Source: Phytohabitans houttuyneae (lineage in GTDB: Bacteria; Actinomycetota; Actinomycetes; Mycobacteriales; Micromonosporaceae). From it: a stretch of DNA of 64,000 nt. The notes beneath the pieces were generated by a model. The model did not search any database and was not told the DNA's origin. It worked only from the letters and a program-made list of their open reading frames with translations. The translations under genes were made by a program, and so were the position numbers. Within the stretch, counting starts at the first letter, position 1. Every line of letters starts with the position of its first letter. The stretch is taken from contig NZ_BLPF01000001.1 in the NCBI RefSeq assembly GCF_011764425.1, forward strand, positions 2,533,001 to 2,597,000, read 5' to 3'. Of this stretch, positions 3,304 through 64,000 are shown in pieces.

Positions 3304-4531
3304 CGGAGTCCCCGGTGTCCCCGGTGTCCCCGGTGTCCATGGCGTCCACGGCGTCCACGGCGTCCATGGCGTCCACGGTGGACGGTGCGGTCGCGGTCGC
3401 CGAGCTGGCCAAGCGGTTCGAGGGCGGCGTCGCCGACGTCGACGAGCTGGTCACCGCGCTGGAGTCGGCCGGCATCAGCGACCGGGTGGCCGCCCGGCGG
3501 TACGGGCAGCCGACGGTGTTCGCGCTCGGTGAGGCGGTCCTCGCCCTGCTGGACCAGCCGCCGGCCCGGGCACCCCGCCCCGGCCGTACCTGCGGGCCGC
3601 CCTGCGCCGCTCCGCGCTGCTGCTCGCCCCGGTCGCCGCCGCGCTCGCCGCCGCCGACGAGGTGGAGCGGGTCGGGTGGATGGTGCCCGCGCTCGCGGCG
3701 GTGCTCGGGTGGGGCGGCGCGCGTGGCCGGCTCTACACCGCGGCCGGCGCACCCCTGGTCGCGGCCGCGTGCCTGCTGGCGCCGGTGGGAGGCGCCGACC
3801 GCCGGCTGGCACTCGCGGTGGGGCTGACCGGGTACGCGCTGGTGGCCGGCGCCCGCACCGGGCTGCTCTGGGCGGTGCCGGCCTGGGCGGCCTCCGCGGC
3901 GCTGCTGGCCGGCGTGTGGGACCGGGTCGAGGTGCTCCCCGTGGCGGCCGCGTTGATGCTGGCCGGCGCGCTGCTGGTCCGCACGCACGCCCCGGTGACC
4001 GGCGTCGTCGCCGCGCTCTGCCAGGGCGCCGCGGCGGTGCTCGTGTGGCGAGCGGCGTCCGACGTGGCGGTGCTGGCATCGGGCGTACCCATGCTGGTTT
4101 TCGTGGTGTGCTGGCACGAAGCCCGCGCCGCCACCGCGGCGGACGCCCACGACGACCTGCGTGCCTTTCATCGTGAGGTGCGTGACCTTGGCACGGTGAC
4201 CGTGGGTGCGCTCGTGCCGCCGCTGGTCGCGGGCGTGGCGCTGGGCGCGGCGGCGTACCGGCTGCCGTACGAGCTGTCCGGCCACCCCGGCGCGCGCGGG
4301 CTGATGCTGAGCGGCGCGGCGGTGCTGCTGCTCGGCGGTGTGCTGGCGCTGACCGCCCTGCTCACCGCGCGCGGACGCCCGGTCGTGGCCGCGCTTGTCG
4401 CGGCCGCCCCACTCTCCGCCCTCGCCGCCGGCGGCACGCTCCTGCCGGCCACCGTCACCGCGCTCGCGGCCACCTACCTCGCCGGGCTGGTGCTGGCCGC
4501 GCACGCCGTCTTCGACCCCGAGCGCTACTGA
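3300..4531 (+). CDS. Multi-pass membrane protein of the glycosyltransferase cluster, with one apparent frameshift
   Basis: The GTG at 3300 overlaps the transferase stop. The N-terminus (VTESPVSPVSPVSMAST) is encoded by 9-base tandem repeats, then a soluble part (VDELVTALESAGISDRVAARRYGQPTVFALGEAVLAL) precedes about nine hydrophobic segments ending at 4531. The first part reads in frame 3 and the membrane part in frame 2. Adding one C to the run at 3573-3576 joins them as LLDQPPARAPPPRPYLRAALRR with no gap, so I treat it as one gene of about 410 residues. I do not recognise the family; a role in polysaccharide export or polymerisation is inferred only from its neighbours. Confidence 0.7.
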
Positions 4532-4953
4532 TGGAACGCTTCGCGAAGATCGACCTCGAGTACGGCGGGCGCCCGCTAGCCGACGTGCTGGACGCGGTCG
4601 AGCGGTGGGCGACGAAGCCGCACGACGGGGTCTTCCTGGACCGCGCGCCGGGCGACCTGGCCGGGCTCGGCGGCGTAGCGCTGGCGGTCCGGGTGGCCCG
4701 CCGCGCCGGGTTCGGGCTGGTGGTGCTCAACCCGGGCCGGCCGGTGGAACCCGCGTACCGCGCGCTGGACGCCGCGCTCTGCGTCTTCGACGGCGACTGG
4801 GGCGCCTACCAGCGGTGGTCCGGCGAGGGCGCGGCGCCCGGGGACGGCCACCTCGTCTACGGTGTGCCCGCCGCGCAGGCCGACACCGCCCGCAAGATGA
4901 TGGAATGGCGAGGTGCGGGCTTCGGCGTGGTAGCCGAAACCCGCACCTGGTAA
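4531..4953 (+). CDS. Short spherulin-4-like (glycosidase-fold) domain protein, N-terminally truncated
   Basis: A 140-residue protein whose ATG overlaps the upstream stop (TGATG). The segments YGGRPLADVLDAVERW, HDGVFLDRAPGD, LVVLNPGRPVEPAYRALDAALCVFDGDWGAYQRW match the second half of spherulation-specific family 4 proteins (YG-R, GIF-DE, NPG and fE-W-Y blocks). Full members are about 200-260 residues; the first barrel strands are missing and no signal peptide is visible. Whether this half domain is active is unknown. Its place behind a PelF-like transferase resembles exopolysaccharide clusters that pair a transferase with a glycosidase-fold protein. Confidence 0.6.
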   Translation: MERFAKIDLEYGGRPLADVLDAVERWATKPHDGVFLDRAPGDLAGLGGVALAVRVARRAGFGLVVLNPGRPVEPAYRALDAALCVFDGDWGAYQRWSGEGAAPGDGHLVYGVPAAQADTARKMMEWRGAGFGVVAETRTW

Positions 4954-4961
4954 CACCTTCC

Positions 4962-11342: not shown

Positions 11343-11904
11343 CTACTCCTCTTTCTGGTGCAATTGAGTCAGGGCCGCCCACCGGGGTCGACCTGCTCGT
11401 GGCTGTGGCCAGCCGGCAGCTCGTCCCAGTGCACCCCACACTCGGGCACAGCCCTGGACAGTCGTCTCGGCACAACGGGGTGACGGGCAGTGCGAGCACC
11501 ACCGCATCCCGCAGCGCAGGCTCCAGGTCGACAAGGTCACCCTGCAACCGGCCGACCTCGTCCTCGTCGGTCGTCTCGTCCGTGGTGCTGTGCTCATACG
11601 CATACAGCTCCTGGATCGGGACGACCACCGAGTCGCTGATCGGGCGCAGGCACCGGCCACACTCACCCGCCGTGGGGGCGGACGCGGTGCCGGAGACGAG
11701 CACGCCCTCCGAGACCGACTCCATCCTCAGGTCGAGGGTGAGATCGGCGCCGTCGGGCACCCTGATCAGCTCCAGTCCGAGGTCCGCCGGTGCCGGCACC
11801 ACCCTCCTGACCGTACGCATCGCACCAGGCCGGCGTGGCAGCTCCCTCGTATCGAGGACCAGCGGCGACCTGGGGTCGAGGTGGGTCTGTGAGTGATTGG
11901 GCAT
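11343..11904 (-). CDS. YceD/DUF177 family protein, with two apparent one-base losses
   Basis: YceD proteins sit upstream of rpmF in most bacteria and are linked to 23S rRNA or large-subunit maturation. The start ATG 11904 gives MPNHSQTHLDPRSPLVLDTRELPRRPG; conserved blocks are CGRCLRPI and PLCRDDCPGLCP. The frame is then lost twice, at 11444-11446 and 11384-11387. Adding one base at each yields LCPECGVHWDELPAG and DPRWAALTQLHQKEE with a stop 5 bases before rpmF, exactly the family C-terminus and both cysteine pairs. Repaired length is about 187 residues. I regard it as an intact gene with two sequence errors. Confidence 0.85.
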
Positions 11905-13983: not shown

Positions 13984-15038
13984 GTGAACCGTACAAAGCT
14001 GTCGTCGCGGCAACCGATCGCCGCTCTCGGCGCGGCCGTGCTCGGCCTCGCGGCCGCCGTCGCCCTCTCCTCCCCGCCAGCGCGCACCACCCCATCGTGT
14101 CCGGTACCGGCAGCTGCATCATCGACGGCGAGTGGAAGGCCACCTGGACCGTCTTCAACAGCGAGGACGACCTCGAAGGCAAGATCGTCAAGGTCGAGCC
14201 CACCGCCGTCGAGGGCATCGCGGAGGGCGCCACTCTCCCGCGCTCGATCGACGGCGGCCTGACCGGCAAGCAGACCCTCTCCGCCGAGACCGAGAGCGTG
14301 ACGCTCAAGGTCAAGGTCCGGTGGAAGCGCGACGGCGTGATCCACACCAAGTGGGCCGAGGGCACCGCCACGCCCCGCAAGCACTGCGGCGAGAAGCCGG
14401 ACGCGACGTTCACGCCGGAGTGCGACGGCTCCGTGGTCGTGACGCTCGACAACACCAAGGGCACCCGCAAGGCCAAGATGACCGTCTCGGCGGGCGAGTT
14501 CAGCGAGAGCGTCGAGGTCCCCGCCGGACAGACGCTGGGCGGCATCGTCGTGCCGGCCGGCTCGGGCGAGATCACCGTCGTCAAGGGCGAAAAGGTGATC
14601 AAGACCTACACCTGGGAAAAGCCGGGTGACTGCGGGCTTCCCACCCCCAGCGACAAGTCGACCTGTGACGAACTCGTCTACATCCTGGAAAACCCGAAGG
14701 ACGGCCGGGACATCACGGTCACGCTGACGCCGAACACGGGCGCGCCGCAGACCATCACCGCCAAGCCGGGTGAGACCAAGGAAGCCCGCTTCCCGGCCGC
14801 CGAGGGCCTCGTGGTCGTCCCCTCGGTCGGCGAGGCCCAGGGCAAGCCCATCACCTGGGAAAAGCCCGACAACTGCGCCACACCGCCCCCGCCCCCGGGT
14901 GAGGGTGGCGGCGGCCCCGAGCTGCCGGTGACCGGCGTCGCGGCCGGTGGCATCGCCGGTGGCGCGCTGGTGCTGCTGGCCATCGGCGCGGTGCTGTTCT
15001 TCATGGCCCGCCGGCGGCGCACGACCTTCACCGCCTGA
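13984..15038 (+). CDS. Cell-wall-anchored surface protein with LPVTG sorting signal, one apparent frameshift
   Basis: The N-terminus MNRTKLSSRQPIAALGAAVL starts a signal peptide in frame 1; the mature part is in frame 3. Adding one C to the run at 14072-14075 makes SSPASA-HHPIVSGTGSC, restoring an A-S-A cleavage site exactly at the junction. The mature part (about 320 residues) has beta-rich modules with paired cysteines, two TWEKP-GDC/DNC repeats, a Pro/Gly linker, LPVTG, a hydrophobic helix and RRRR. This is a sortase substrate of actinobacterial type. The ligand or role is unknown; it is isolated between convergent recG and divergent rsmD. Confidence 0.82.
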
Positions 15039-15119: not shown

Positions 15120-17302
15120 TCAGCCCTTTTCGAGGTACTCGGCGCGCTCCTCGTCGACCAGGGCTGCCACGGACGCGGCGAGTGCGGGATGCCGCTCCAG
15201 CTCCGGGTCGTCCTCGACGAGCGAGATTGCCTCCGCGCGGGCGTCGTTGATGAGCTTGGTGTCGTGCAGCAGCGACAGCAGCCGCAGGTGTGAACGCCGG
15301 CCCGACTGGGTGGCGCCCAGCACGTCACCCTCCCGTCGCTGCTCCAGGTCGATCTCGGCGAGCCGGAAGCCGTCGGTGGTGGAGGCGACCGCGTCAAGCC
15401 GCTCGCGGGCGGGCGTGCCCTCCTGCGCCTCGGTGACCAGCAGGCACAGGCCCGGCGCGGAGCCGCGACCCACCCGGCCGCGAAGCTGGTGCAGCTGGGA
15501 GACGCCGAAGCGGTCGGCGTCGAGGACCACCATGACGGTCGCGTTGGGCACGTTGACTCCGACTTCAATGACCGTGGTGGCGACGAGCACGTCGAGCTTG
15601 CCCGCCGCGTACGCCCGCATCACCGTGTCCTTCTCGTCCGCCGGCAGCTTGCCGTGGAGCACGCCGATGCGCAGGCCGTGCAGCGGGCCCTCGGACAGCA
15701 GCGGGGCCACGTCGAGCACCGCCACCGGCGGGCGCCGCCCGTTGTCGTCCGCCCCGTCCGGCGCGTCCTCTTCGGACGAGCCGGTGTCGCCGATGCGCGG
15801 ACACACCACGTACGCCTGGTGGCCGGCCGTGACCTCCTCGCGGATCCGCTTCCACGCGCGCTCCAGGAAAGCCGGCTTGTCCGCGGCGGGCACCACGTGC
15901 GAGGCGATCGGCGAGCGGCCCTGCGGGAGCTGGGACAGCGTGGACACCTCAAGGTCGCCGTAGACGGTCATCGCCACCGTGCGCGGGATCGGCGTCGCCG
16001 TCATCACCAGCACGTGCGGCGGCTGCTCGGCCTTGGCGCGCAGGGCGTCGCGCTGCTCCACGCCGAAACGGTGCTGCTCGTCGACCACCACCAGGCCGAG
16101 GTCGGCGAAGTCGATGCCTTCGTACAGCAAGGCGTGCGTGCCCACCACGATGCCCGAACGGCCGGTCGAGATCTCCTCCAGCGCCCGCCGGCGGGCCGCC
16201 GCGCCCAGCGAGCCGGTGACGAGCGTGACGCGGGTGGCACCCTCGGCCGAGTCGAGCTCGCCGGCGCGGCCGAGCGGGCCGAGCAGCTCGGTGATGCCGC
16301 GGTAGTGCTGGGCGGCGAGCACCTCCGTGGGCGCGAGCATCGCGGCCTGGCCACCGGCGTCGACGACCTGGAGCATCGCGCGCACGGCCACGAGCGTCTT
16401 GCCCGAACCCACCTCGCCCTGCAACAGCCGGTGCATCGGGTGCGGCGTGGACAGGTCTTCGGCGATCTCCTCGCCGACCGTGCGCTGGCCGGCGGTCAGC
16501 TCGTACGGCAACGTGGCGTCGAACGCGGCCAGCAGCCCTTCCTGCTTGCGCCGGCGGGGGCGGGCCGGCCAGGCGGCCGCGCGGTGCTTTCGCTGCACGA
16601 GCGTGAGCTGCACCGCGAACGCCTCGTCCCACTTGAGCCGCCGCCGCGCCCGGTACAGGTCCTCTTTGGACGACGGCCGGTGGATCTCGCGCAGCGCGGT
16701 GGCGATGTCGACGAGGTTGCCGTGGGCGCGCACGGTCGACGGCAGCGGGTCCTCCGGCGGGGTCACCACCTGCAGCAGCACGCCGACGCAGCGCGCGATC
16801 GTCCAGGTCGGCACCTTGGCGGCCGCGGGGTACACCGGGATCAGCGCGCCGGCGAACTCCTCGACCTCCTCCGACGCCTCGCCCTCTTCGGAAAAGAGCA
16901 CGTACTGCGCGCCGTTGAGCTGGCGCTTGCCCCGAAACTCGGTCACCTTGCCGGCGAACAGCCCCCACCGGCCGGGGCGCAGCTCGCGCTCGCGCCAGAC
17001 CTGGCGACGCCCGAAGTACGTCAGCATGAGCTGGCCGCCCGCCCCGTCGCCGACCGTCACCTCGAGCATCTCGTCGGCGCCGCCCCGGATGCGGCGGCGG
17101 CTGGCGGCGCGCACCTGCGCCATCACGGTGACGTCCTCGCCGACCTCCAGCGAGCGGATGTCGGTGTGGTCGCCACGCTCGTCGTACCGCCGGGGAAGTG
17201 GTAAAGCAGGTCGCCCGCCGTGTGCAGGTCGAGGTGTGTGGCGAGGGCCTTGGCCGTGTTGGCGCCGAGCACCTTGGTCAGTGGGGTGTCCACGTCGGTC
17301 AT
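15120..17302 (-). CDS. recG: ATP-dependent DNA helicase RecG, one apparent frameshift near the start
   Basis: RecG remodels stalled forks and Holliday junctions. The true start is ATG 17302 (MTDVDTPLTKVLGANTAKAL), overlapping the DAK gene stop as ATGA. The reading frame breaks at the G run 17192-17195; one added base gives LLYHFPRRYDERGDHTDIRSLE, the conserved wedge-domain start, and joins the 668-residue downstream frame. Helicase motifs seen: LLQGEVGSGKT (Walker A), VVDEQHRFG (DExH), VMTATPIPRT, VATTVIEVGVNVPNA and HQLRGRVGRG. Repaired length is about 727 residues, normal for the family. Confidence 0.93.
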
Positions 17303-18870
17303 TCGATGCCTACCAGGAGCGGATAGGTGGGTTGGCCGCCGTCGTAGATCTGCACCTCCACGAACGGCCAGCGCTGCGTGAGATGCTCGCTCAGCTCGTC
17401 GCCGAGGCCGGGTGGCGCGCCGTCGCCGAGCAGGAGCGTGACCAGCTCGCCGCCCCCGCCCAGCATGCGGTCGAGCAGGTCGAGGCAGGTCTGGCCGAGC
17501 TCGGTGCCGATGATGTGCACCTCGTCTTCGACCAGCGCGAGCACGTCGCCCGGGCGGCAGCGGCCGGCCATGGTGAGCGCTTCGCGGCTGGCGTAGCAAA
17601 CCTCCGCGTACCGGCAGGCGCCCGCCGCCTCGGCCATCGCGATCACGTCGTCTTCGAAGCCGCGGCCGGCGTCGCGCACCGCCAGCGCGGCCAGCGCCTG
17701 CACCGGCGAGCGGGTGGGCACGACACTGACCCGCACGCCCCGCGCCTGCGCCTCGCGCGCCGCCGCACCGGCCACCGCCTGGGTGTCGGGGTCGTCGGGC
17801 AGCACCACCACCCGCCCGGCCCGCGTGGCGAGCACGGCGTCGAGGATCTCGGCGGTCGACGGGTTGGCGCCGATCACCCGCGCGCCCTCGCCGCCGAAGA
17901 GCTCGACAAGCCCGGGACCGGCGGCGACCACCACGGCACCCCGCCCGTCCGGGTCGAGCGGCGGCGCCTGGTCCTCAAACCGCGTGACCGTGATCCGGTG
18001 TGGCCGACCCGCCTCCACGCCGGCCTCGATGGCGGCGCCGACGTCGTTGACGTGGACGTGCACATTCCACGTGGGCTCCGCACCCACCACGACGAGCGAG
18101 TCGCCCAGGTCGGCCAGGGTCGCCCGCAGCCGGTCGACGGAAGCGGAGTCGGCGTCGAGGAGGTACTGCACCTCGTACCCGTACTCCGAGGATCCGGTCT
18201 CGCGTGCGGCGATGACGGGGCGGCGGACGGTGACCGGTGCGGACACCACCTCCTGCCCGGTGACGACCGCAACCAGCGCGTCGAGCAGCACGCAGAGCCC
18301 CCGCCCGCCGGCGTCGACCACACCGGCCCGAGCCAGCGCCGGCAGCTGCTCGGGCGTGCGGGCCAGCGCGCGGGCGGCCGCCCCGGCCGCCGAACGCGCC
18401 ACCGCGTCGAGGTCGTCCGAGCCGGTCGCCGTGGCACCCTCCGCGGCGGCTGAGGCGACGGTCAGGATCGTCCCCTCGACCGGCTTGGCCACCGCCGCCC
18501 GGGCCGCCGTGGCCGCCTCACCCAGCGCCTCGGCGAGCGCCCGCCCGCGGACCGCACCGGCGTCGACGAGCGCGTCAGCCATGCCGCGCAGCAGCTGGGA
18601 GACGATCACACCGGAGTTGCCCCGCGCGCCCAGGAGCGCGCCGCGCGACATGAGCCGCAGGACGCCGCCGCTGTCGTCGCCGCCGTTGACCGCGTCGTTG
18701 GCGATGGCCTGCTGCGCGGACGCGACGGTGAGCACGAGGTTGGTGCCGGTGTCGCCGTCGGGCACGGGATAGACGTTGAGCTGGTCGATCTCTTGCTGGT
18801 GCAGGCGCAGCGACTCCAACCCGGCCGCGCACCACCGGCGCACCGCCTCCGCGTCGAACGTCTCCAGCAC
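17299..18870 (-). CDS. DAK2-domain kinase protein (FakA/YloV-like)
   Basis: A 523-residue protein. The N-terminal DAK2 ATP-binding domain contains the metal/phosphate motif NVYPVPDGDTGTNLVLT (residues 32-48) and SRGALLGARGNSGVIVSQLLRG. A middle region (SSEYGYEVQYLLDADS ... SLVVVGAEPTWNVHVHVNDVG) and a C-terminal DegV-like part follow. Family members include fatty acid kinase subunit FakA, which uses a separate lipid-binding FakB; none is in the window. GTG start 18870. It sits between rpmB and recG, the standard actinobacterial order. Confidence 0.88.
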   Translation of the reverse strand: MLETFDAEAVRRWCAAGLESLRLHQQEIDQLNVYPVPDGDTGTNLVLTVASAQQAIANDAVNGGDDSGGVLRLMSRGALLGARGNSGVIVSQLLRGMADALVDAGAVRGRALAEALGEAATAARAAVAKPVEGTILTVASAAAEGATATGSDDLDAVARSAAGAAARALARTPEQLPALARAGVVDAGGRGLCVLLDALVAVVTGQEVVSAPVTVRRPVIAARETGSSEYGYEVQYLLDADSASVDRLRATLADLGDSLVVVGAEPTWNVHVHVNDVGAAIEAGVEAGRPHRITVTRFEDQAPPLDPDGRGAVVVAAGPGLVELFGGEGARVIGANPSTAEILDAVLATRAGRVVVLPDDPDTQAVAGAAAREAQARGVRVSVVPTRSPVQALAALAVRDAGRGFEDDVIAMAEAAGACRYAEVCYASREALTMAGRCRPGDVLALVEDEVHIIGTELGQTCLDLLDRMLGGGGELVTLLLGDGAPPGLGDELSEHLTQRWPFVEVQIYDGGQPTYPLLVGIE

Positions 18871-19260
18871 GCGATGAGCCTACTGTCGCCCACCGACAGC
18901 GGCGCGTTCTCCCATCGCCCGCCGTGGCATGTCGCCGCGGGCCGCTCACGCCGCATGGTGGGGCCAGGTCACACGCGCAAAACCGATGCGGGCTACCGCG
19001 ATGTCCGCCGTGGTCCGGACCGTTGCTCCCGCGGCCTCACCCGCCGCGGGGGTCGGGCTTGGCCCGCGGACCTCGCAGCGGAGGCCGGGGATCTCGGCGA
19101 GCCCTGCGAGCCGCCGGCCGCAGCGGTGCCCGCGGGAAAGCACCCAAAGAAAACGCTCCGCTGCGCTCCACGTTTCCCCCGGGGCCCGCGCATGCGGTCC
19201 GCAGGTGGCGCGGACCGGGGCACATCCGCTTGAAAGGAACGTAATGAGGCCGGGCACAGA
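18871..19260. repeat. Mosaic of three intergenic repeat families
   Basis: No gene here. The stretch joins a CGGGCTACCGCGATGTCCG module (18990 on) found also at 7.9 and 8.4 kb, a GCAGCGGAGG ... GGGATCTCGGCGAGC module (19072 on) shared with 27.3, 44.2 and 45.2 kb, and a GGAAAGCACCCAAA ... CGTTTCCCC segment (19136-19186) that is the reverse complement of 7926-7962. The last splits the second module compared with its other copies. Confidence 0.7.
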
Positions 19261-19295
19261 CGTAGCCGCCGGATCGGTGTGATCCGGCGGCTACG
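19261..19295 (-). terminator. rpmB terminator hairpin
   Basis: CGTAGCCGCCGGATC and GATCCGGCGGCTACG form a perfect 15-pair stem with a 5-base loop, 25 bases past the rpmB stop. Confidence 0.8.
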
Positions 19296-19319
19296 GAAGC
19301 TACTCGTCTGGGGCGCGCC

Positions 19320-19511
19320 TCAGGCGCGGACGACCTTGCCCGCCTTGATGCACGAGGTGCAGACCTGCATCTTGCGGGTGGTGCCGCCACCGGCCGGCGT
19401 GCGGACGGTCTGGATGTTGGGGTCCCAGCGCCGCTTGGTCTTCTTCTTGGACCACGGCACGTTGTGGCCGAAGCCCGGCCCCTTGCCGCAGACGTCGCAC
19501 ACGCTAGCCAC
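19320..19511 (-). CDS. rpmB: 50S ribosomal protein L28
   Basis: A 63-residue ribosomal protein, start GTG 19511 (VASVCDVCGKGPGFGHNVPW) with AGGAGAG before it. The zinc form with CDVC and CTSC is present, matching the zinc form of L32 in this window. It is monocistronic, closed by a strong hairpin. Confidence 0.96.
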   Translation of the reverse strand: MASVCDVCGKGPGFGHNVPWSKKKTKRRWDPNIQTVRTPAGGGTTRKMQVCTSCIKAGKVVRA

Positions 19512-19625
19512 GGAACTCTCCTGGGATTGTCGATCATGATGTCGCCGACGGATGCGGTCCGGGCAACCTGACCAGGGTAGCCGATCCCCCGCGCGCCGAG
19601 CCAATCGGGCCCCGCGAGGGCGGCC

Positions 19626-20696
19626 TCAGCGGTCGCCGACCGTGGCGACCACCTTCTGGGTCCAGGTGGCCTGGTAGGTCACGTCCGGGTCCAGCTTCGG
19701 GACACCCGGGCCCGAGACGATCTTCAGGTCGGCGTCGAGCGTCACCGAGCGCCGGCCCACGGCGGAGCCCGTGGCGGGGTCGAAGAGGATCTCGTCGCCG
19801 ACGCCCCGCTCGGTGTGCCGCACGGCCACGAGCCGCCGCCCGTCGATCGTCGTCTCGCTGGAGGTGATGCCCCGCAGCCCGGTGAACGACAGTAGCAGCG
19901 CCGCACGCAGCTCCGGCGTCATCAGCAGGTCGCTGGTGAAGTAGAAGTCCTGCAGCGCGTTCCAGAGCGAGTGGTCGGTGGACCAGGCCCCGCCCTCGCC
20001 GGCGAGCTCACGCAGCTTGCCGCGAAGCTGCTCCGGGTCGGTGGGCAGCCCGGCGATCCACTCGGGCGTCGGCGCCCTGAGCCCCAGGTCGGTCGGCTCG
20101 ACCTGCCCGCGATCGCCGCCGGTGCCCAGCTCCTTGCTGCCGTCGGTGATGGACCGCGGGACCATGCCCTGCGGGTCAAACCACATCTCCCGGATCTGCC
20201 GCTCGATCGTGCCGCTCTCCAAATTCGCCTCGGGCGGTGCGGCCCCGGCGGCGCCCTCGCCCTTGGCGCCACCCGCGTTCGCCTGGAACGAGGCCGCCCA
20301 CCCGTCGTGGTACACGAAGATCAACTGCCCGGGCCGCACCTTGGCGGCGGCCGGGCCGTGCTTCGCGGCCTCGGCGAGGGCGTGGAGGACGGCGACCGTC
20401 TGCGGTGACGCGGGCGTCAGGTTGGGCTCGGCGGTCTTTTCGTCGGAGGGCGAGCCGGCCTCCAGGTCGCCGCCGCCCCCGTCCGGCCGGAAAAGCGCGG
20501 CGCCGCCCACCACCAGGCCCGCGACGAGCGCCGCGGCCATCGCGGGGACGAGGATCCGGGAGGGGGTACGCGCCCGCGCCGGCTTGCGCTGCGCCGTGAT
20601 CCGGTGCCAGGTGCGGCTGACCGACTCGTCGGTCGGCTCAGGGAGGCCGGGCGGGAGGTCCCGCACGGCGATGATGTCTGAATCGTCGCGGCTCAT
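19626..20696 (-). CDS. CU044_5270-type membrane protein, partner of the ECF sigma factor
   Basis: A 356-residue protein overlapping the sigma gene stop as ATGA (MSRDDSDIIAVRDLPPGLPEPTDESVSRTW). It has an N-terminal cytoplasmic part of about 50 residues, one membrane helix (ILVPAMAAALVAGLVVGGAALF), and a large extracytoplasmic domain with WIAGLPTDPEQLRGKL and VGRRSVTLDADLKIVSGP. Such proteins are common behind actinobacterial ECF sigma factors and probably act as membrane-bound regulators or sensors; I see no zinc anti-sigma motif (HxxxCxxC). Confidence 0.78.
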   Translation of the reverse strand: MSRDDSDIIAVRDLPPGLPEPTDESVSRTWHRITAQRKPARARTPSRILVPAMAAALVAGLVVGGAALFRPDGGGGDLEAGSPSDEKTAEPNLTPASPQTVAVLHALAEAAKHGPAAAKVRPGQLIFVYHDGWAASFQANAGGAKGEGAAGAAPPEANLESGTIERQIREMWFDPQGMVPRSITDGSKELGTGGDRGQVEPTDLGLRAPTPEWIAGLPTDPEQLRGKLRELAGEGGAWSTDHSLWNALQDFYFTSDLLMTPELRAALLLSFTGLRGITSSETTIDGRRLVAVRHTERGVGDEILFDPATGSAVGRRSVTLDADLKIVSGPGVPKLDPDVTYQATWTQKVVATVGDR

Positions 20697-21235
20697 CGCG
20701 CGTCTCCTTCGGCGAGGGCGGCCCGCACCTTGGCGCGGGCACGGTGCAGTGCCGACTGGACCGATCCCAGGGGAATCTGCAGGGCCTCGGCGATCTCCGC
20801 GTACTCCAGCTCGGCCACCGCGAAGAGCATCAGCACATCGCGCTGCCGCCGCGGCAGTTTCGCGAGTACGGCGGAGAGCCGCCCCACCGCCCGCTCGGCG
20901 TCCACCCGGTCGGTGGCGCGCTGTGCCGGTCCCTCCGCCGCCCGCGCTCCCCCGTCCGCGTGCGCGAGCGCCCGGAGTGCCCGGATCTCGGTGCGGCGGT
21001 GGCGGCGCAGCAGGTTGGTGGCGATGCCGTAGAGCCACGGCAGCACCTCACCCCGGCTGGCGTCGTAGCGGTCGCGCCGCTCGTACGCGACGAGGAATGT
21101 CTCGGCCACCACGTCCTCGGCGACCTGCTCACCCACCCGGCGCGTGCAGTAGCGCAGCAGGTCCCTGGCGTACCGGTCGAACACCCCCGCGAGATCAGCC
21201 GGATCGATCGCGACGGGGGTCGTCGGCGTCGTCAT
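20693..21235 (-). CDS. ECF-type RNA polymerase sigma factor
   Basis: About 180 residues. Sigma region 2 (AGVFDRYARDLLRYCTRRVGEQVAEDVVAETFLVAYERRDRYD ... VLPWLYGIATNLLRRHRR) and region 4 (LPRRQRDVLMLFAVAELEYAEIAEALQIPLGSVQSALHRARAKVR) are complete. ATG 21235 was chosen by the spacing to GGCAAG; ATG 21241 or an upstream codon at 21259 are alternatives. Its target promoters are unknown; co-translation with the downstream membrane protein implies signal-dependent release. Confidence 0.9.
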   Translation of the reverse strand: MTTPTTPVAIDPADLAGVFDRYARDLLRYCTRRVGEQVAEDVVAETFLVAYERRDRYDASRGEVLPWLYGIATNLLRRHRRTEIRALRALAHADGGARAAEGPAQRATDRVDAERAVGRLSAVLAKLPRRQRDVLMLFAVAELEYAEIAEALQIPLGSVQSALHRARAKVRAALAEGDAR

Positions 21236-26401: not shown

Positions 26402-26637
26402 ATGACTGAGGCAACCGAGCTCGCCGCGGCGGCAGGAAGCACCGACCCCGGGTCGGCCTCCGCTCGGTGCTGGCCCTCCGCCGCCTGCTGGAGACCCTCG
26501 AGGTGCTCCAGGTCGACAACGCGCGGCGGCAGGGCTGGTCGTGGCAGGAGATCGCGGACGCGCTCGACGTGACAAAGCAGGCAGTCCACAAGAAGCACGC
26601 CGGCCGGCCGCCGGTGGGCACACGGCGGGAGGCGTGA
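26402..26637 (+). CDS. Small HTH regulator paired with a Clp_N protein, one apparent frameshift
   Basis: Begins MTEATELAAAAGSTDP at 26402, three bases after the second palindrome. One C added to the run 26446-26449 gives DPRVGLRSVLALRRLLETLEVLQVDNARRQGWSWQEIADALDVTKQAVHKKHAG, a complete helix-turn-helix, stop at 26637, 78 residues. The stop overlaps the next ATG. HTH plus Clp_N pairs are common in actinobacteria. Autoregulation through the twin palindromes is inference. Confidence 0.82.
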
Positions 26638-29566: not shown

Positions 29567-30272
29567 GCCTTCTCCCCTTCGCCGGCGCCCACAGCGGCGG
29601 CGGCGTCTCGCCGCGGATCCCGGCCAGCAGGTCGCGGACGCGCAGCATGATCTCGTCGGTCATCTCGTCGAGGGTGGCCCGCGTGGGCTCCGCGCCGGCC
29701 CAGCGGGAGAGGTCGACCGGCGGCCCGGCGGCGATCGTGATCGGCGTCCGCGGCCGCACCCGGACCTTCTTGGTGCGCGTGTCGTAGAAGCCCTGCGCAC
29801 CCCACTGCGCGATCGGGATGACCGGAGCGCCGGTGGCCAGCGCGAGCCGGGCCGCGCCGGTCTTGCCCCGCATCGGCCACAGGTCGGGCTCGCGCGTGGT
29901 CGTACCCTCCGGATAGATGATCACGGCGCCGCCGTCCTTCAGCGCCGCGGTGAGCGCTTCCAGCGACTTCACCGCGTCGACGCTGCCCCGCTCGACCGGG
30001 ATCTGCTGCACCCGCAGGATCAGCCGCCCGATCACCGGTACCCGAAAAACGCTGGCCTTGCCCAGGAAGCGCGGCCACCGGTGTGCGTCGTAGACGAAGT
30101 GCGCCATCACCAGCGGGTCGGCGTGGGAGAGATGGTTGGGCGCCAGGATCACCCCGCCGGTGGGCGGAATGTGCTCCTGGCCGGTCCATGTGCGCCTGGT
30201 CATCGGTGTCATGACCGACTTGACCAAAATCACCACGAACCGCCGCAATGGCCCCAGCCGCTTGACGGCCAT
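29563..30272 (-). CDS. 1-acyl-sn-glycerol-3-phosphate acyltransferase (PlsC family), apparent base loss at the 3' end
   Basis: Membrane-associated acyltransferase making phosphatidic acid. [27 protein letters not shown], the catalytic [10 protein letters not shown] (HxxxxD), [26 protein letters not shown] (substrate block) and [13 protein letters not shown] are present. The frame runs past the expected end because one G is missing at 29574-29577; adding it gives LWAPAKGEKA and a stop overlapping gpsA as ATGA. Repaired length 236 residues. Confidence 0.9.
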
Positions 30273-44149: not shown

Positions 44150-44272
44150 CGTCCGCGTCACCTGCGGACCGCACGCTCCCGCGGGCCACGCGGAGGTCGG
44201 CGGCTCGCCAGGGCTCGCCGAGATCCCCGACCTCCGCTGCCGACTCCGCGCGACAAGCCCAACCCGGGATCG
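44150..44272 (-). repeat. Dispersed intergenic repeat, copy 3
   Basis: Minus strand reads GGTTGGGCTTGTCGCGCGGA ... GCAGCGGAGGTCGGGGATCT ... GCGGGAGCGTGCGGTCCGCA. It directly follows the ndgR stop by 25 bases and borders the 62-bp array. Confidence 0.75.
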
Positions 44273-44318
44273 GCGCCAGACCCACGCGCCGGCCAGCCAC
44301 AACCGGCCCACCACAAGG

Positions 44319-45025
44319 GCATCACCCTGCCCGCTCGCCGAAAGCACACCGTGGCAACGCCACACCGGCCAACCACAGCGCATCACCGCGCCCGTCTGCC
44401 GGAAGGCACGCCAGGGCAACGCCACGCCGGGCAACCGCCGAGCAGCGCGATGAACCCGGCGGTGGAGCGGGCGATGACGTTGGCGATGCCGCGTCCTGGA
44501 CCCGGCGGGGGCTGCCCGTGGTGGACCGACAGGGCATCACCGCGCCCGCCCGCCGAGAAGCACACCATGGCAATGCCGTCCGGCTGGCCACAGGAGCATC
44601 ACCGCGCCCGACCGCCGGAAAGCACGCCGCGGCAACGCCACGCCGGCCCGCAAAAGGGCATCACCCTGCCGCCGCCGGAAGCACGCCGTGGCAACTCCAC
44701 GCCGGCCAGCCGCAGGGCATCGCCGAGCGCCTGACCGTCGGAAGGCCCGCCGTGGCAAGGCCGTCCGGCCAGCCACGGGGCATCACTGCGGCCGCGCCGC
44801 GATCACACCGCGGCAACGCCACGCCGGCCGACCACAGGGGCATCACCGCGCGTGCCCGTCGGAGGCGCACCGTGGCAATGCCGTGCGGTCGGCCACCGGG
44901 GCGTCGCCGTGGCTGCCCGCCGGAAAGCACGCCGTGGTAACGCGGCGCCGGCCGGCCACAGCGCATCACCGTGGCTGCCCGCTGGAAGGCGCGCCGTGGC
45001 AAGGCCGTCCGGGCTCGCCAGCCGC
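44319..45025. repeat. Ten-copy degenerate tandem array, unit about 62 bases
   Basis: Unit starts (GCATCACC or close variant) at 44319, 44380, 44534, 44596, 44658, 44717, 44780, 44840, 44901 and 44963; spacing 59-63 except a non-repeat insert of about 95 bases at 44438-44533. Each unit continues CGCCCG-CCGCCGGAAAGCAC, GCCGTGGCAACGCCACGCC and GGCCAACCACAGG. On the minus strand the units read as a repeating ALPRRAFRRSGAVM-like peptide, but frames shift from unit to unit, so coding is doubtful. Confidence 0.85.
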
Positions 45026-45214
45026 CCCGAGATGGCCTCCGGCGACTTGGTTGGCCTAGCTTTGGCTGTGTCGCTGCTCTTCCTCGACGGCGTGGGCGCT
45101 TCGCCGGTCGCGACGCGACGTTCGGCGACGGCACAAGGCTCTCGCTGATCGGCCGGGCGGTGGCCGCCATCCGGTCAGCCGATGTGCCGCTGACCCGCGG
45201 CCGCACTGCGCTGT

Positions 45215-45336
45215 CGGGGTTGTCCTTGTCGCGCGGAGCCGGCAGCGGAGGTCGGGGATCTCGGCGAGCGCCAAGCTCGCCGCCGACCGGAGCGGTGCCC
45301 GCGGGAGCATGCGGTCCGCAGGTGACGCGGACGCGG
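45215..45336 (+). repeat. Dispersed intergenic repeat, copy 4
   Basis: Contains GTTGTCCTTGTCGCGCGGAG, GCAGCGGAGGTCGGGGATCT, CGGCGAGCGCCAAGCTCGCC and GCGGGAGCATGCGGTCCGCA. Opposite orientation to the copy at 44.2 kb; together they bracket the 62-bp array. Confidence 0.75.
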
Positions 45337-45360
45337 GCAAATCCTGGCTCTGAAAACGAT

Positions 45361-45468: not shown

Positions 45469-45556
45469 AGGACTTTCTTTGCTCCGCTGCCCTATCGGAC
45501 AACGGTGCTGAACTCTACCAGAGGGCCAGCACCGGCGTCCTCACGGACAACGGCTG

Positions 45557-45627
45557 CTGGGGTACCAGGACTCGAACCTAGACTAACTGAACCAGAATCA
45601 GTTGGGCTGCCAATTACCCCATACCCA
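45557..45627 (-). tRNA. tRNA-Gln (anticodon CTG), one acceptor base apparently missing
   Basis: Read on the minus strand: TGGGTAT ... GGTAATTGGCAG ... ACTGA-TTCTGGT-TCAGT ... TAGGTTCGAGTCCT ... TACCCCAG. The 3' acceptor strand is TACCCCA, so the 5' strand should be TGGGGTA; only three G are present at 45624-45626. With one G added the molecule is a standard 72-base tRNA-Gln. It is 88 bases upstream of tRNA-Glu, a common actinobacterial pair. Confidence 0.9.
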
Positions 45628-45705
45628 TTGGCACGTGCCCATCGGGCCGTACCGGAGGGGAACTCTACCCGACTGGACGGCTCCCACCCAAATCGACCCG
45701 CGCGG

Positions 45706-50007: not shown

Positions 50008-51577
50008 ATGAAGCGCATCATCGTCCCGGCCGCGGCGGCCGTTCTCGCCGTAGCCGCCGTCACCTTCACCGCCGGCGGCGCGCAGGCGGCGACGCTGTTC
50101 AGCGACAACTTCGAAGACGGCAACAGCAGCGGCTGGACCACGAGCGGCGGTACCTGGGCGGTCGCCGCTGACGGCTCGCAGCTGTTGCGGCAGTCCGGCA
50201 CCAGCAGCGACGCCCGCGCGCGGGCCGGGCAGGCGAGCTGGACCGACTACACGGTCACGGCAAAGGTGAAGCCGACCGCGTTCAGCGGCAGCAACCGCTT
50301 CGCCGCCGTGCTCGCCCGCGCGCAGTCGGCCACCAGCTACTACTACGTGGCGCTGCGCTCCAACAACACCGTCGAGCTCAAGAAGCTCGTCAACGGCACC
50401 GCCACCACGCTCGCCTCGGGCTCGCTGACGGTCTCGGCCGGCACCACCTACACGGTCAGCCTCCAGGTGGCCGGCTCGACCCTGCGCTCCACGGTCAACG
50501 GCAGCGCCGCGCTGAGCGCCACGGACACGGCGTTCGCGGCCGGCGGGGTCGGCGTCGCCACCTTCTATACGGCGGCCAACTTCGACGACGTCTCCGTGGA
50601 CACGGCCGCGACGCCGACCACCCCGCCGCCGAGCAGCGCCAACCCGACCACGCCGCCCCGACCACGCCGCCCCGACGACTCCTCCGCCGGCGCCGGGCGG
50701 CGGGCCGATCGGGTTCGCCTCGCTGAACGCGCTCGGGCAGAACGGCGTGACCGGCGGCGCCGGCGGGCGCACGGTCACAGCGACGAACGCGACGGAGTTC
50801 CTGGACTACATCGACAGCACGGAAACGCTGATCATCCGGGTGGCCGGGCAGATCAACATCACGAGCAAGCAAGGGGTACGGCCGAACAAGACGATCATCG
50901 GCGTCGGCACCTCGGGCCACATCAACGGCGGCGGGCTGGACTTCTACCGCTCGTACAACGTGATCGTGCGGAACCTCCGCTTCACCAACGCCGAGGACGA
51001 CGCGGTAAACGTCGGGCAGGAGTCGCACCACATCTGGATCGACCACAACTCCTTCTCCGGCGCGGTCGACGGCTCGATCGACATCGTGCGCGGCGCCGAC
51101 TACGTGACCGTGTCGTGGAACCACTTCGACCACTCCGACAAGAGCATGCTGATCAGCCACTCGGACGGGGCGGCCTCCACCGACATCGGCCACCTGAAGG
51201 TGACCATCCACCACAACTTCTTCGACAACAGCCGGCAGCGCCACCCGCGCATCCGCTTCGGCGAGCCGGTGCACGTGTTCAACAACTACTTCCTGAACAA
51301 CGAGCTCTACGGCGTCGCCTCGGTACAGCAGGCCGGCGCGGTGGTGGAGAACAACTACTTCGAGAACGTGCCGTTCCCGTGCTTCTCCGCCAGCGGGTAC
51401 GCCGACAGCGGGCCGGGACGGCTCGTGCACCGGGGCAACACGTTCGTCAACTCGGGCACCTGTGAGGCGGCCGGTTCGGTCGTGGAGCCGCGCACCTACT
51501 ACTCGTACACGATGGACAGCGCCGCCAGCGTCCCCGGCCTCGTGCGGGCCGGCGCCGGCTACGGCAAGGTCAGTTGA
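50008..51577 (+). CDS. Secreted pectate lyase (PL1) with N-terminal LamG/CBM-like module, two apparent one-base losses in the linker
   Basis: Signal peptide MKRIIVPAAAAVLAVAAVTFTAGGAQA, then a beta-sandwich module of about 170 residues (ATLFSDNFEDGNSSGWTTSGGTWAVA ... GVGVATFYTAANFDDVSVD), a Thr/Pro linker, and a PL1 domain starting PIGFASLNALGQNGVTGGAGG. The module is in frame 1 and the lyase in frame 2. Adding one C to each run at 50656-50659 and 50670-50673 gives a clean TTPPPTTPPPTTPPPAPGGGPIGF linker. Lyase motifs: HHIWIDHNSFSGAVDGSIDI and QRHPRIRFG. Repaired length about 523 residues. ATG 50008 follows GAGGTG. The 3' end overlaps the convergent kinase gene by 19 bases. Confidence 0.9.
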
Positions 51578-58631: not shown

Positions 58632-59657
58632 TCAACCCGTGGCGCAGGTCGCGGTTGGTGTGGTGTTGTTGCCGTTCTTATAAAGCGTGATGCCGAAGTT
58701 GTTGCCGCTGCCGTTGGGCCGCGCGGTCAGTGTGCCGCTGGTGCCGCTGACCGAGGCGTTCCAGCTGTTTTGCAGGCTCTGGCCGCCGTTGGTGCGGATG
58801 GTGACGACCCAGTTGCTGGCGCCGGTGACGTTGAACGTCGTGTTGAAGCGGTCGGTCCACTCCTGGCCGCGGGTGACGCTTACCGAGCAGCTGCCGCCCG
58901 GGTTTCCGGGACCGGAGGTCGTCGGGTTCGGGTTGGGGTTGCTGCCTTCGCGGACGGTAATGTCGGAGCTGCCCTGGCTCTGGTAGCCCTCGGTCGCCAT
59001 CACCTGGTAAGCCCAGCTGCTGCCGAGGTTCAAACCAGCACGCGCCCACGCGTCGACGTGGTTGGCGAAGGTGATGGTGCCACTGCTGCGCTTCTGCTGG
59101 CGCACACTCCAGTACTGGTAGAACGTGGCAGTGCCATCGATCGACGGCTGGTTCACCCGCTGGCTGCGCAGAATGTCATAGGTGCCGCCGTCAGTAGTGA
59201 CCGTGCCGAGCCGCTGGGCGCCGCTGCTCGGGTTGTAGCTGCCGAAGTTCTCCACCACGTAGTACTCGATCAGCGAGTTCCGCGTCCACCCGTACAAGGC
59301 CAGGTACGTGTTGTTGTTACCCGGGTTGTACGTACCGGAGTAGCTGACCGTCCTCCGCGAACCAGTGGCCCAACCCTTACCGCCAACCCAGTTGTTCGTG
59401 CTCCTGCTCCAAGAGCTGGAGTAACGGCCATTCTCGCGCAACGTCATACAGGCGTCGCCACTGTCCTTCCAGAACGAGAAGTAGAACCCGTTGTGCGTGC
59501 CAGTAGTGTTCGAGCAGACCTGCCGGTCCGCCTCGGCGTACGCGTTTGTCGCGACCGTTGTGCCGCCGACGGCCAGCACCAGGGCGCAGGCGGCGCCGAT
59601 GAGCATCCTGGTGCGGCCGCGCCTGCGGCGACCAGGTTGGGCAGGGGCGTCGTTCAT
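58632..59657 (-). CDS. Secreted endo-1,4-beta-xylanase, GH11 with CBM2
   Basis: A 341-residue enzyme. Signal peptide ending at TNAYA (residue 41; twin-arginine-rich N-terminus RRRRGRTRM). The GH11 jelly roll contains the nucleophile Glu131 in [11 protein letters not shown] and acid/base Glu223 in [16 protein letters not shown] linker ([14 protein letters not shown]) joins a C-terminal CBM2 cellulose/xylan-binding module ([32 protein letters not shown] ... CATG). Together with the pectate lyases it points to plant cell-wall use. Confidence 0.95.
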
Positions 59658-59964: not shown

Positions 59965-60369
59965 TTACGAGGCACTCCAGTCGCGCCACCTGCGGACGGT
60001 CACCTCGATGATCGGGCCGGGCAGCTCCACCGTGCGGTACTGCGCGTACTTCTCCCGGAGCAGCCGCACCGCGCGGTCCACCGCCGGCGCCTGCTCGGTC
60101 ACCACGGCAAGGCCGTCGGCGCGCACCCACCACAGCGCCGACCACTCCTCGTCCCAGTGCTGCGCCAGCAGGCTCACCCGCGGGTTGGCGCGGATGTTGT
60201 CCAGCCGGCGCAGCGCGCGGCTCCGCTTGGGCTTGGCGTCCACCGCCGACCACACCGTGTCGCCGTCCAACGCGAACGTCACCGGCACCACATGCGGCGC
60301 GCCCGCACTGTCCACCGTGGCCAGTGTCGCGACGCGGGCGGCGGCGAAGCGCGCGCGGGCCGGCGTCAC
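59965..60369 (-). CDS. PPOX-class F420-dependent oxidoreductase (TIGR03668-like)
   Basis: A 134-residue split-barrel flavin/F420-binding protein: ARFAAARVATLATVDSAGAPHVVPVTFALDGDTVWSAVDAKPKRSRALRRLDNIRANPRVSLLAQHWDEEWSALWWVRADGLAVV. GTG 60369 overlaps the luciferase-like gene stop (GTGA), so both F420-type enzymes are co-translated. Substrate unknown. Confidence 0.88.
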   Translation of the reverse strand: MTPARARFAAARVATLATVDSAGAPHVVPVTFALDGDTVWSAVDAKPKRSRALRRLDNIRANPRVSLLAQHWDEEWSALWWVRADGLAVVTEQAPAVDRAVRLLREKYAQYRTVELPGPIIEVTVRRWRDWSAS

Positions 60370-61219
60370 AGCACCACGTCGGCCAGCCGGTCCACCTCGT
60401 CGACCGACGGCACGGTGGGGTCGAGGACCAGCTCGGTCACCCCCACGTCGGCGAACGCGCGCACCGCCGCGCGGATCGCGTCCGGCGAGCGCAACGCCGA
60501 GACCGCGACGCCCTCGCCGCCGTCCGGCAGGAACGAGTAGTAGCGGCGCAGCGACCCCATCGAGACCTCCGCGTCGCCGAGTCCGAAGTAGACGAGCGCG
60601 CTGATCCGCGGCTCGCCCTCGCGCCCCGCCTCCTGCCACGCCTGCCGTACCTTCGCGATCATCGGCCCGACCCGGTCGGGGCTCGCCCCGCCCGCGGTCC
60701 AACCCTCCCGTACGCCACCGTGCGCCGCACCGCCGCGTCCGAGCTGCCACCGATGAGCACCCGCACGCGGTTGCCCGCCGCCGGCTCGGGGCCTACCGGA
60801 TGCTCGTCGCCGGTCACGCTCTCGCCGGCCCAGGCGCGGTGGAGAAGGTCGAGCGTCTCGTCCATCAGCTTGCCGCGCCGCTCGACCGGCCGCTCCATCG
60901 CGGCGAAGTCGTCCGGCCGGTTGCCCACCCCGAGCCCCAGCGTCAACCGCCCGCCGGAGAGCGCGTCGAGGCTCGCCGTCGCCTTGGCCAGCCACACCGG
61001 CGGGTACACCGGCGTGAGCAGGATGTCAGGGAAGAGCCGGATCCGCGAGGTGGCGCCCGCGGCGGCCGCGAGGGCGGTGAGCGAGTCGTACGACGGGTAC
61101 ACGATCCGGTCGATCGTCGCCAGCGAGCTGAACCCCCGCGCCTCCGCGCGGCGCGCCCACTCGACAACATCCTGGCCATTGATGTGCAACGTGTTCGGCA
61201 GCCCGATCGCTATGTCCAC
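60366..61219 (-). CDS. Luciferase-like (LLM) F420-dependent oxidoreductase, one apparent frameshift
   Basis: MDIAIGLPNTLHINGQDVVEWARRAEARGFSSLATIDRIVYPSYDSL opens a TIM-barrel LLM domain; SGGRLTLGLGVGNRPDDFAA and VLIGGSSDAAVRRTVAYG follow. The frame is then lost; adding one G at 60707-60709 gives AYGEGWTAGGASPDRVGPMIAKVRQAWQEAG and runs on to the stop at 60366. Repaired length 284 residues, normal for the family. Confidence 0.88.
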
Positions 61220-61266
61220 AAGGTCTCACCGTACGCGCTGGGCAGGCCCCGCGAGCCGGTACCGGC

Positions 61267-62205: not shown

Positions 62206-62282
62206 AGAACCCCCACACCCCCTACAACCGATTTACCCGGTTCCGTCACGCCCCTGTCGATCACCGTGGCTACCGTCAGGGC

Positions 62283-63242
62283 ATGGCGAGATGGCTGACG
62301 GTGCTCTGCTGGGCGGTGGCCGTGCCGGGCGTGCTGTGGGCCGCGGTGCGGCTGCTCGGCGTGGAGCGCGGGCCGCTCGTGCAGCTGCTCGCCTTCACCC
62401 CGTACGCCGCCGCGTGGAGCCTCGGCCCCCTGGTGCTCGCCCTCGCCCTGCGGCGCTGGTGGCCGGCGGGCGTGGCGGCCGTCGCCGCGGTGGCGCTTGT
62501 CGCGGTCGTGGTGCCGCGCGCGATCGGCGGCCCGGCCGGCGGCGACGGCCCCACCCTCCGCGTACTGACCGCCAACCTGCTCGCCGGCGCGGGTGACGCC
62601 GAGACGCTCGTACGGATCGTGCGCGAGCGCGAGGTGGACGTGCTGGCGGTGCAGGAGTTCACGCCCGCGGCGGCCGCCCGCCTCGACGCGCTGGGGCTGG
62701 CCGCTCTGCTGCCGCACCGGCGGCTCAACCCGATCGCCGGCACGGAGGGCTCCGGGCTGTACTCCCGCTACCCGCTCACCGCCACCGGCGTGCGGCAGAA
62801 CCCGGGCGGCTTCACGCAGGCGTACGGCACGCTGACCGCGCCCGGCGCCGCACCTACCACAGTGGAGTCCGTGCACCCGGCCGCGCCGTACTCGCTTGGC
62901 CAGCTGCGCGCCTGGGAGCGGGATCTCGACGCGCAGCCGCGGGCCACGCCGAGCGGGCCGGTGCGCGTCCTCGCCGGCGACTTCAACGCCACGCTCGACC
63001 ACGCGCCGCTGCGCCGGCTGATCGACTCCGGCTACCGCGACGCGGCCGACGCCGCCGGCGCGGGGCTCACCGGCACATGGGGGCCGTATGACGGCGATCG
63101 GATCCCGCCCGTCACCATCGACCACGTGCTGGTGGACCGCCGCGTCGGCGTACGCGACGTGTCCGTGCTCCGCCTGCCGGGCAGCGACCACCGCCCGGTC
63201 TACGCGGAGCTGGCGCTACCGCGCGCTGATCTGGGCGGGTGA
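62283..63242 (+). CDS. Membrane-anchored endonuclease/exonuclease/phosphatase family protein
   Basis: A 319-residue protein with three N-terminal helices (LTVLCWAVAVPGVLWAAVRLLG, LLAFTPYAAAWSLGPLVLALAL, GVAAVAAVALVAVVVP) and an EEP domain with LTANLLAGAGDAETL (metal Asn), AVQEFTPAA (Glu), SVHPAAP, LAGDFNATLDHAPL and DHVLVDRRV ... SDHRPVYAEL (catalytic His). Likely an extracytoplasmic nuclease or phosphodiesterase. ATG 62283. Confidence 0.9.
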   Translation: MARWLTVLCWAVAVPGVLWAAVRLLGVERGPLVQLLAFTPYAAAWSLGPLVLALALRRWWPAGVAAVAAVALVAVVVPRAIGGPAGGDGPTLRVLTANLLAGAGDAETLVRIVREREVDVLAVQEFTPAAAARLDALGLAALLPHRRLNPIAGTEGSGLYSRYPLTATGVRQNPGGFTQAYGTLTAPGAAPTTVESVHPAAPYSLGQLRAWERDLDAQPRATPSGPVRVLAGDFNATLDHAPLRRLIDSGYRDAADAAGAGLTGTWGPYDGDRIPPVTIDHVLVDRRVGVRDVSVLRLPGSDHRPVYAELALPRADLGG

Positions 63243-64000
63243 CAGCCCGTACGTGAGCGCGTCGACGAGCGCGTGCCAGCTCGCCTCGACAACGTTTTCG
63301 TGGACGCCCACCGTGGTCCAGTCGCGGCCGCCACCGTCGGCGGTCTCGACGAGCACCCGCGTGACCGCGCCACTGCCGTGGGAGCCCTCGAGGATCCGCA
63401 CCTTGTAGTCGGCGAGCTCGAAGTGGGCAAGCGCCGGGTAGTGCCGGCGCAGCGCCACCCGCAGCGCCTCGTCGAGGGCGTTGACCGGGCCGTTGCCCTC
63501 GGCGGTGGCGATGACCCGCTCGCCGCGCACCCGCACCTTGACGGTGGCCTCGGAGACGACCGCGCCGTCCTCGCGGTGCTCGACCTGCACGCGGTACGAC
63601 TCCAGGGCGAACGGCTTCGCCGTGCTCTCACCCGGCAGCTCCGAGCGGACGAGAAGCTCGAAGGACGCGTCCGCGGCCTCGAACGACCACCCGCGCGCCT
63701 CCAGCTCCTTGACCCGGCGCGTGACAGCGGAGAGGGCTTCCGGATGGCCGGCCAGGTCCAGACCGAGCTCGCGACTCTTGAGCTCGATGCTGGCCCGGCC
63801 GGCCATCTCGGTCACCAGGATCCGCATGTCGTTGCCCACAATGGATGGATCAATGTGGTTGTACAGCACCGGGTCCACTTTGATCGCGCTCGCGTGCAGC
63901 CCCGCCTTGTGAGCGAATGCCGCGGCCCGACGTAAGCCTGGTGGGTGTCGGGGCGATGTTGGCGATCTCGGCGACGGCGTGCGAGACGCGCACCGTCTGT
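63216..64000 (-). CDS. cimA: Citramalate synthase-type (LeuA-related) enzyme, 3' part, two apparent one-base losses, cut by window edge
   Basis: The C-terminal 220 residues are in one frame: KVDPVLYNHIDPSIVGNDMRILVTEMAGRASIELKSRELG and the LeuA-dimer regulatory domain (SFEAADASFELLVRSEL ... YKVRILEGSHGSGAVTRVLVET ... HENVVEASWHALVDALTYGL). Upstream at the right edge, QTVRVSHAVAEIANIAP then breaks; adding one base at 63950-63953 and one at 63926-63928 restores IAPDTHQAYVGAAAFAHKAGLHASA. Lack of the start leaves size unknown. The type fits citramalate synthase (isoleucine from pyruvate and acetyl-CoA); isopropylmalate synthase is less likely because of the ASAIKVDP-YNHIDPS segment. It overlaps the convergent EEP gene by 27 bases. 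Confidence 0.85.
   Translation of the reverse strand, partial: RRCASRTPSPRSPTSPRHPPGLRRAAAFAHKAGLHASAIKVDPVLYNHIDPSIVGNDMRILVTEMAGRASIELKSRELGLDLAGHPEALSAVTRRVKELEARGWSFEAADASFELLVRSELPGESTAKPFALESYRVQVEHREDGAVVSEATVKVRVRGERVIATAEGNGPVNALDEALRVALRRHYPALAHFELADYKVRILEGSHGSGAVTRVLVETADGGGRDWTTVGVHENVVEASWHALVDALTYGLSPAQISAR

What the first reader, a model, noticed from the sequence alone, without database searches (positions are those of the whole stretch)
3573..63953. Thirteen one-base losses, all in short C/G runs, break otherwise conserved loci
Sites: 3573-3576, 11384-11387, 11444-11446, 14072-14075, 17192-17195, 26446-26449, 29574-29577, 45624-45626 (a tRNA), 50656-50659, 50670-50673, 60707-60709, 63926-63928 and 63950-63953. 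Every one is a loss, never a gain, in a run of three or four C or G, and one added base restores a conserved protein or stem. They hit essential genes (recG, yceD next to rpmF, tRNA-Gln). This pattern fits consensus under-calling of homopolymers rather than biology. Any automated annotation of this assembly will create false pseudogenes, false fusions and truncated proteins.
Basis: seen in the sequence. Interest (0 to 1): 0.75.

Follow-up and report, generated by a model that had tools for sequence, protein, structure and literature searches.

The report
Missing bases in a long-read assembly
The broken genes in this stretch are almost certainly sequencing-assembly mistakes, each a single base dropped next to a short run of C or G, and sister genomes of the same make carry the same kind of mistake, so gene lists built on them will contain false pseudogenes and false split genes.

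Summary
At 9 of 13 sites every relative aligned across the site is one base longer. Two sites (3573, 60707) rest on one relative, and two (50656, 50670) are supported only as a pair.

A screen of 184 kb of this genome (154 gene alignments) for frame-breaking indels private to one genome found 11 losses and 1 gain here. Three sister assemblies have 20, 23 and 15 losses with 1, 0 and 1 gains; a 100-contig same-genus draft has 1 and 1. Of the 69 losses, 62 touch a C/G run of three or more, against 15-18% expected. Outside the window such losses also break rpoC, rpsL and rplV, each found at one place only.

Size and scaffold number match Phytohabitans houttuyneae NBRC 108639. It and the three sisters match one PacBio RSII/Canu 1.4 study (PMC7692728), whose authors asked whether the genus's split PKS/NRPS genes are artefacts. 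In two NRPS loci compared here, the frame breaks sit at such losses.

Verdict: a known kind of artefact, useful to flag, not biology.

The parts
3573..3581 (+). frame break in an unnamed G+C-rich gene (about 3304-4531)
   Evidence: G002 one base longer; mismatch phase shift. One relative only.
11384..11387 (-). one-base loss in yceD (second of two)
   Evidence: 4 of 4 relatives longer; YceD by Pfam on the G005 copy
11444..11446 (-). one-base loss in yceD (first of two)
   Evidence: 4 of 4 relatives longer
14072..14075 (+). one-base loss near the start of an unnamed gene ending at 15038
   Evidence: 2 of 2 relatives longer, third; no Pfam family
17192..17195 (-). one-base loss near the start of recG; the remaining 668-aa frame lacks the wedge-domain match of the intact G002 copy
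   Evidence: 4 of 4 relatives longer
26446..26449 (+). one-base loss in a gene with Clp N-terminal domains
   Evidence: 3 of 3 relatives longer; Clp_N in G003 and window frames
29574..29577 (-). one-base loss at the end of an acyltransferase gene; its stop is missed and the frame runs on to 28725 (739 aa against 461 aa in G005)
   Evidence: 4 of 4 relatives longer
45624..45626 (-). one-base loss in the acceptor stem of tRNA-Gln(CTG), gene 45556-45628
   Evidence: 5 of 5 relatives longer; tRNA call
   Evidence: one frame in the 3 relatives that hold both halves, two frames in the window; Pfam
60707..60709 (-). one-base loss in a luciferase-like monooxygenase gene
   Evidence: G002 one base longer, the only relative aligned; Pfam match cut short at position 185 of 314 against 285 in G002
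63926..63928 (-). one-base loss in leuA
   Evidence: 5 of 5 relatives longer; LeuA domains
63950..63953 (-). second one-base loss in leuA
   Evidence: 5 of 5 relatives longer

Best explanation
The 13 breaks are consensus errors of the assembly. Single-molecule (PacBio RSII) reads lose bases at short C/G runs; in a genome of about 72% G+C such runs are everywhere; a Canu consensus, with no polishing step described, kept the shorter call. The living strain very probably has intact genes. Shown here: the breaks are private to this assembly, nearly all losses, at C/G runs, found also in universal genes present once, and shared in kind with three sister assemblies. Inferred: the identity of the genome (P. 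houttuyneae NBRC 108639, by size and scaffold number), the absence of polishing (none is named in the methods section), and the read-level cause.
For: Relatives one base longer at 9 of 13 sites without exception. Private losses/gains: 11/1 here, 20/1, 23/0, 15/1 in sisters, 1/1 in draft G005; 69 against 1 losses p 7e-6, this genome alone 11 against 1 p 0.007, losses against gains 69:3 p 3e-17, 62 of 69 at C/G runs of 3 or more against 15-18%. rpoC, rpsL and rplV broken, each at one place in the genome. Four assemblies match one PacBio RSII P6/Canu 1.4 study. The assembly with most losses has the lowest completeness (G003, 89%). Published precedent in Streptomyces with PacBio data.
Against: No raw reads were seen. 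How G005 was sequenced is unknown. G008, a one-contig genome of another genus, shows 4 private losses in 71.1 kb (two of them two-base), 0.056 per kb against 0.074 here; I read them as alignment noise at gene ends but did not test it, so that genome is a weak control. Completeness does not follow the loss rate exactly: G004 (96%) has more losses per kb than this genome (95.4%). Sites 3573 and 60707 rest on one relative; 50656/50670 could be one gain.
Confidence: 0.96

Rival explanations
1. Real, recent frameshift mutations: the strain is losing genes or has a mutator phenotype biased to deletions.
For: The breaks are absent from relatives, as recent mutations would be.
Against: They hit rpoC, rpsL and rplV, present once each; three sister species have their own private sets at similar rates; runs of 3-5 are too short for common slippage, and slippage gives gains as well (general knowledge), against 69:3 seen.
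Confidence: 0.01
2. Programmed ribosomal frameshifting: the genes are made from two frames on purpose.
For: The breaks lie at short runs, where programmed shifts can occur (general knowledge).
Against: Relatives have one open frame at the same place; many unrelated genes and a tRNA are hit, and a tRNA is not translated.
Confidence: 0.003
3. The losses come from sequencing but are caused by a chemical modification of the DNA in this genus that makes the polymerase skip bases.
For: Four assemblies of one genus are affected alike; at 16 of 24 unanimous sites the lost base looks like a lone base between runs rather than a run member.
Against: No motif search was run and no kinetics were seen; by eye the contexts share only C/G runs. 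Of the 14 lone-base cases whose codon position could be read, 10 are third positions, where the strain may differ. Ordinary run errors suffice.
Confidence: 0.025

Closest known systems
Residual indels in PacBio-only assemblies of high-G+C actinomycetes (PMC4832174, PMC6923854; passages seen)
   Same: PacBio genomes of Streptomyces; PMC4832174 (P6-C4) corrected 205 remaining indels with Illumina reads, nearly all in G or C homopolymers; PMC6923854 found the vast majority of 70, 295 and 335 changes to be single-base insertions in homopolymers, which I read as bases missing from the PacBio version.
   Different: PMC4832174 had polished with Quiver before that count, and both had Illumina data. 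Here no polishing is described and the density is higher (0.07 to 0.19 per kb in the screen, against about 0.03 per kb from 205 in 7.17 Mb).
Gene-fragmenting errors in long-read assemblies found by comparison with references (Kastor, PMC12007338; passages seen)
   Same: Same logic: frame breaks absent from relatives are taken as errors; homopolymer-linked deletions give false pseudogenes.
   Different: That tool also uses raw reads, and the errors it profiles by k-mer are from nanopore assemblies.

Membership tests
Long-read consensus deletion artefact | Losses far outnumber gains | tested here: met
   69 losses, 3 gains in four assemblies
Long-read consensus deletion artefact | Errors sit at homopolymer runs | tested here: met
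   62 of 69 touch a C/G run of 3 or more; 15-18% expected
Long-read consensus deletion artefact | The lost base is a member of the run | tested here: inconclusive
   Unanimous relatives: 8 run members, 16 other bases; of 14 of the 16 with readable codon position, 10 third positions
Long-read consensus deletion artefact | Breaks indispensable single-copy genes | tested here: met
   rpoC, rpsL, rplV
Long-read consensus deletion artefact | Same-genus genome of other make lacks it | tested here: inconclusive
   G005: 1 loss, 1 gain in 136.7 kb, but its sequencing method is unknown
Long-read consensus deletion artefact | Accurate reads show the longer run | not testable with these tools
   No reads available
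Genuine pseudogenes | Confined to dispensable genes | tested here: not met
   rpoC, rpsL, rplV broken
Programmed frameshifting | Break conserved in relatives | tested here: not met
   Relatives longer by one base at 9 of 13 sites in every relative printed

The most novel reading that the evidence does not exclude
The losses mark a real chemical property of Phytohabitans DNA (for instance a base or backbone modification at C/G-rich spots) that makes the sequencing polymerase skip a base, so the error map would be a map of the modification.
Probability: 0.025. Interest if true: 0.5.

Novelty: not a real feature. Interest (0 to 1): 0.27.

Why it matters
As biology it is nothing: the breaks are artefacts. 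It matters for use of the records. The authors of the four genomes noted that PKS and NRPS genes of the genus look split over many proteins and could not say whether this was artefact (PMC7692728, Discussion passage). In the two NRPS loci compared here the frame breaks coincide with one-base losses of single assemblies, which answers the question in part and shows how to finish it. Pseudogene counts and completeness values of these genomes should be read with this in mind.

Tried and rejected
Pairwise mismatch-phase calling over the whole window was too noisy where breaks lie close together; it even assigned some losses to the wrong genome (for example 11383 to G004). Replaced by per-gene multiple alignment. 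A first gene selection by summed bit score took spurious long antisense frames; replaced by an identity-based choice, to which 8 spans chosen by hand were added in the window, some overlapping others, so a few bases count twice; no event is listed twice. Left out of the screen: two spans skipped for too few relatives (one in each of the two outer blocks), and 3385-4953 and 59965-61225, where only G002 aligned. Considered and rejected: pseudogenes, mutator strain, programmed frameshifting. The idea that most losses are lone bases between runs was weakened by the codon-position check. In one search the G005 frame picked for the gene at 18647-20743 of the ribosomal block was a wrong one, so that gene is not named. 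The second half of the luciferase-like gene gave no Pfam match (protein 1). Literature: a search for residual Canu/Quiver errors with 5 of 6 terms found nothing; one for 'Phytohabitans houttuyneae' with 'pseudogene' found nothing; some searches were seen as listings. Read: PMC7692728 outline, sections 2.1 and 3.1 and passages; PMC4832174, PMC6923854 and PMC12007338 passages only.

Full report
What was checked. The window is bases 2,533,001-2,597,000 of contig 1 of an 11.34-Mb, five-contig genome. LeuC is 88% identical to Plantactinospora and Micromonospora proteins, so the organism is an actinomycete close to the Micromonosporaceae. All 13 runs are present as described.

Comparison with relatives. 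Syntenic stretches of four same-genus genomes (G002-G005) and one of another genus (G008) were fetched and aligned. At 9 of 13 sites every relative printed across the site is one base longer: 11384, 11444, 14072, 17192, 26446, 29574, 45624, 63926, 63950. Sites 3573 and 60707 rest on G002 alone; for 3573 the third-position mismatch phase changes in window coordinates but stays constant in G002 coordinates. Sites 50656 and 50670 lie in a variable linker. One open frame spans it in the 3 relatives that hold both halves, and the window changes frame across it, which fits two losses but also one gain.

Genes hit. Pfam on relatives' copies and on window frames gives yceD (two losses), recG, a Clp N-domain gene, an acyltransferase, a pectate-lyase-like gene, a luciferase-like monooxygenase and leuA (two losses); the genes at 3573 and 14072 got no firm name. 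The acyltransferase loses its stop, so its frame runs on through the next gene (739 aa against 461 aa in G005). The tRNA-Gln(CTG) acceptor stem is one base short; the next best match in the genome is 77% identical over 66 bases.

More than chance. Frame-breaking one- or two-base indels private to one genome were sought in three blocks: the window, the next 60 kb, and 60 kb around the ribosomal and RNA polymerase genes. There were 154 gene alignments, with G002, G003, G004, G005 and G008 in 147, 125, 138, 143 and 78 of them. Losses/gains: this genome 11/1 in 149.4 kb, G002 20/1 in 144.2 kb, G003 23/0 in 121.0 kb, G004 15/1 in 130.8 kb, G005 1/1 in 136.7 kb, G008 4/0 in 71.1 kb. Two of the G008 losses are two-base. 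I take the G008 calls for noise at gene ends but did not test it; its rate (0.056 per kb) is not far below this genome's (0.074), so G005 is the better control. Losses in the four near-closed assemblies against G005: 69 against 1, p 7e-6; this genome alone 11 against 1, p 0.007; losses against gains 69:3, p 3e-17. Of the 69 losses, 62 touch a C/G run of three or more, against 15-18% for random places in the window. The other 8 fall outside its filters (too few relatives, a tRNA, a repeat-rich linker, gene ends).

Why it cannot be biology. In this genome a loss splits rpoC into two frames (one of 1,307 aa in G005), puts the start of rpsL out of frame with the rest, and splits rplV. Whole-genome searches give one place for each: S12 once, the rpoC domain once in a 756-aa frame, L22 only as two overlapping pieces of one gene. 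Sister assemblies carry their own: rpoB and rpsL in G003, rpoC in G004.

Where it comes from. A 2020 paper reports PacBio RSII (P6) genomes assembled with Canu 1.4 for four Phytohabitans type strains: 9.6 Mb in one scaffold, 10.7 in three, 11.3 in five, 10.2 in one (PMC7692728, sections 2.1 and 3.1). These match G003, G004, this genome (P. houttuyneae NBRC 108639) and G002, by size and scaffold number only. No polishing is named in section 2.1, and 'Illumina' does not occur in the main text; the earlier procedure that section cites was not read. Published Streptomyces work found residual PacBio indels mostly in homopolymers.

An open question touched. The paper says that some PKS and NRPS genes of the genus look split on many proteins and that it is unclear whether this is artefact. 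In one NRPS locus G005 has one frame of 3,706 codons, G003 two (one loss) and G004 three (three losses). In another, compared only between this genome and G002, this genome has frames of 6,639 and 3,083 codons where G002 has five losses and more, shorter frames; this genome has one loss of its own there. That is 2 loci, not all clusters.

What stays open. Whether the lost base is a run member: unanimous relatives give 8 run members and 16 other bases, but of the 14 of those 16 with readable codon position, 10 are third positions, where this strain may simply differ. Reads would settle it.

Noticed in passing
window 44126-45352: Two repeats of about 120 bases in inverted orientation (44139-44265 and 45217-45344) enclose an array of imperfect units about 62 bases apart (roughly 44306-45035). 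Copies of the 120-base repeat occur at many places in this genome and in the same-genus relatives (capped list). In 4 of 4 same-genus relatives no aligned block over 300 bases covers the stretch. Six open frames in it gave no Pfam match over a cut-off.
   Followed up: partly
L147, L148, L149 and G000:C2:2084001-2120000 (L150, L151): NRPS genes open in one assembly and interrupted at one-base losses in another, relevant to the published remark on split PKS/NRPS genes in the genus.
   Followed up: partly
G004:C1:3681122-3681493: The ribosomal S8 match of the sister assembly G004 stops at model position 119 of 126 and sits in a 324-aa open frame, unlike the other five genomes: perhaps another false fusion.
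   Followed up: no
window 50723-51577 and 58632-59657: Pectate-lyase-like and family 11 glycosyl hydrolase (xylanase-type) domains within 9 kb: plant cell-wall-degrading enzymes, fitting a plant-associated actinomycete.
   Followed up: no
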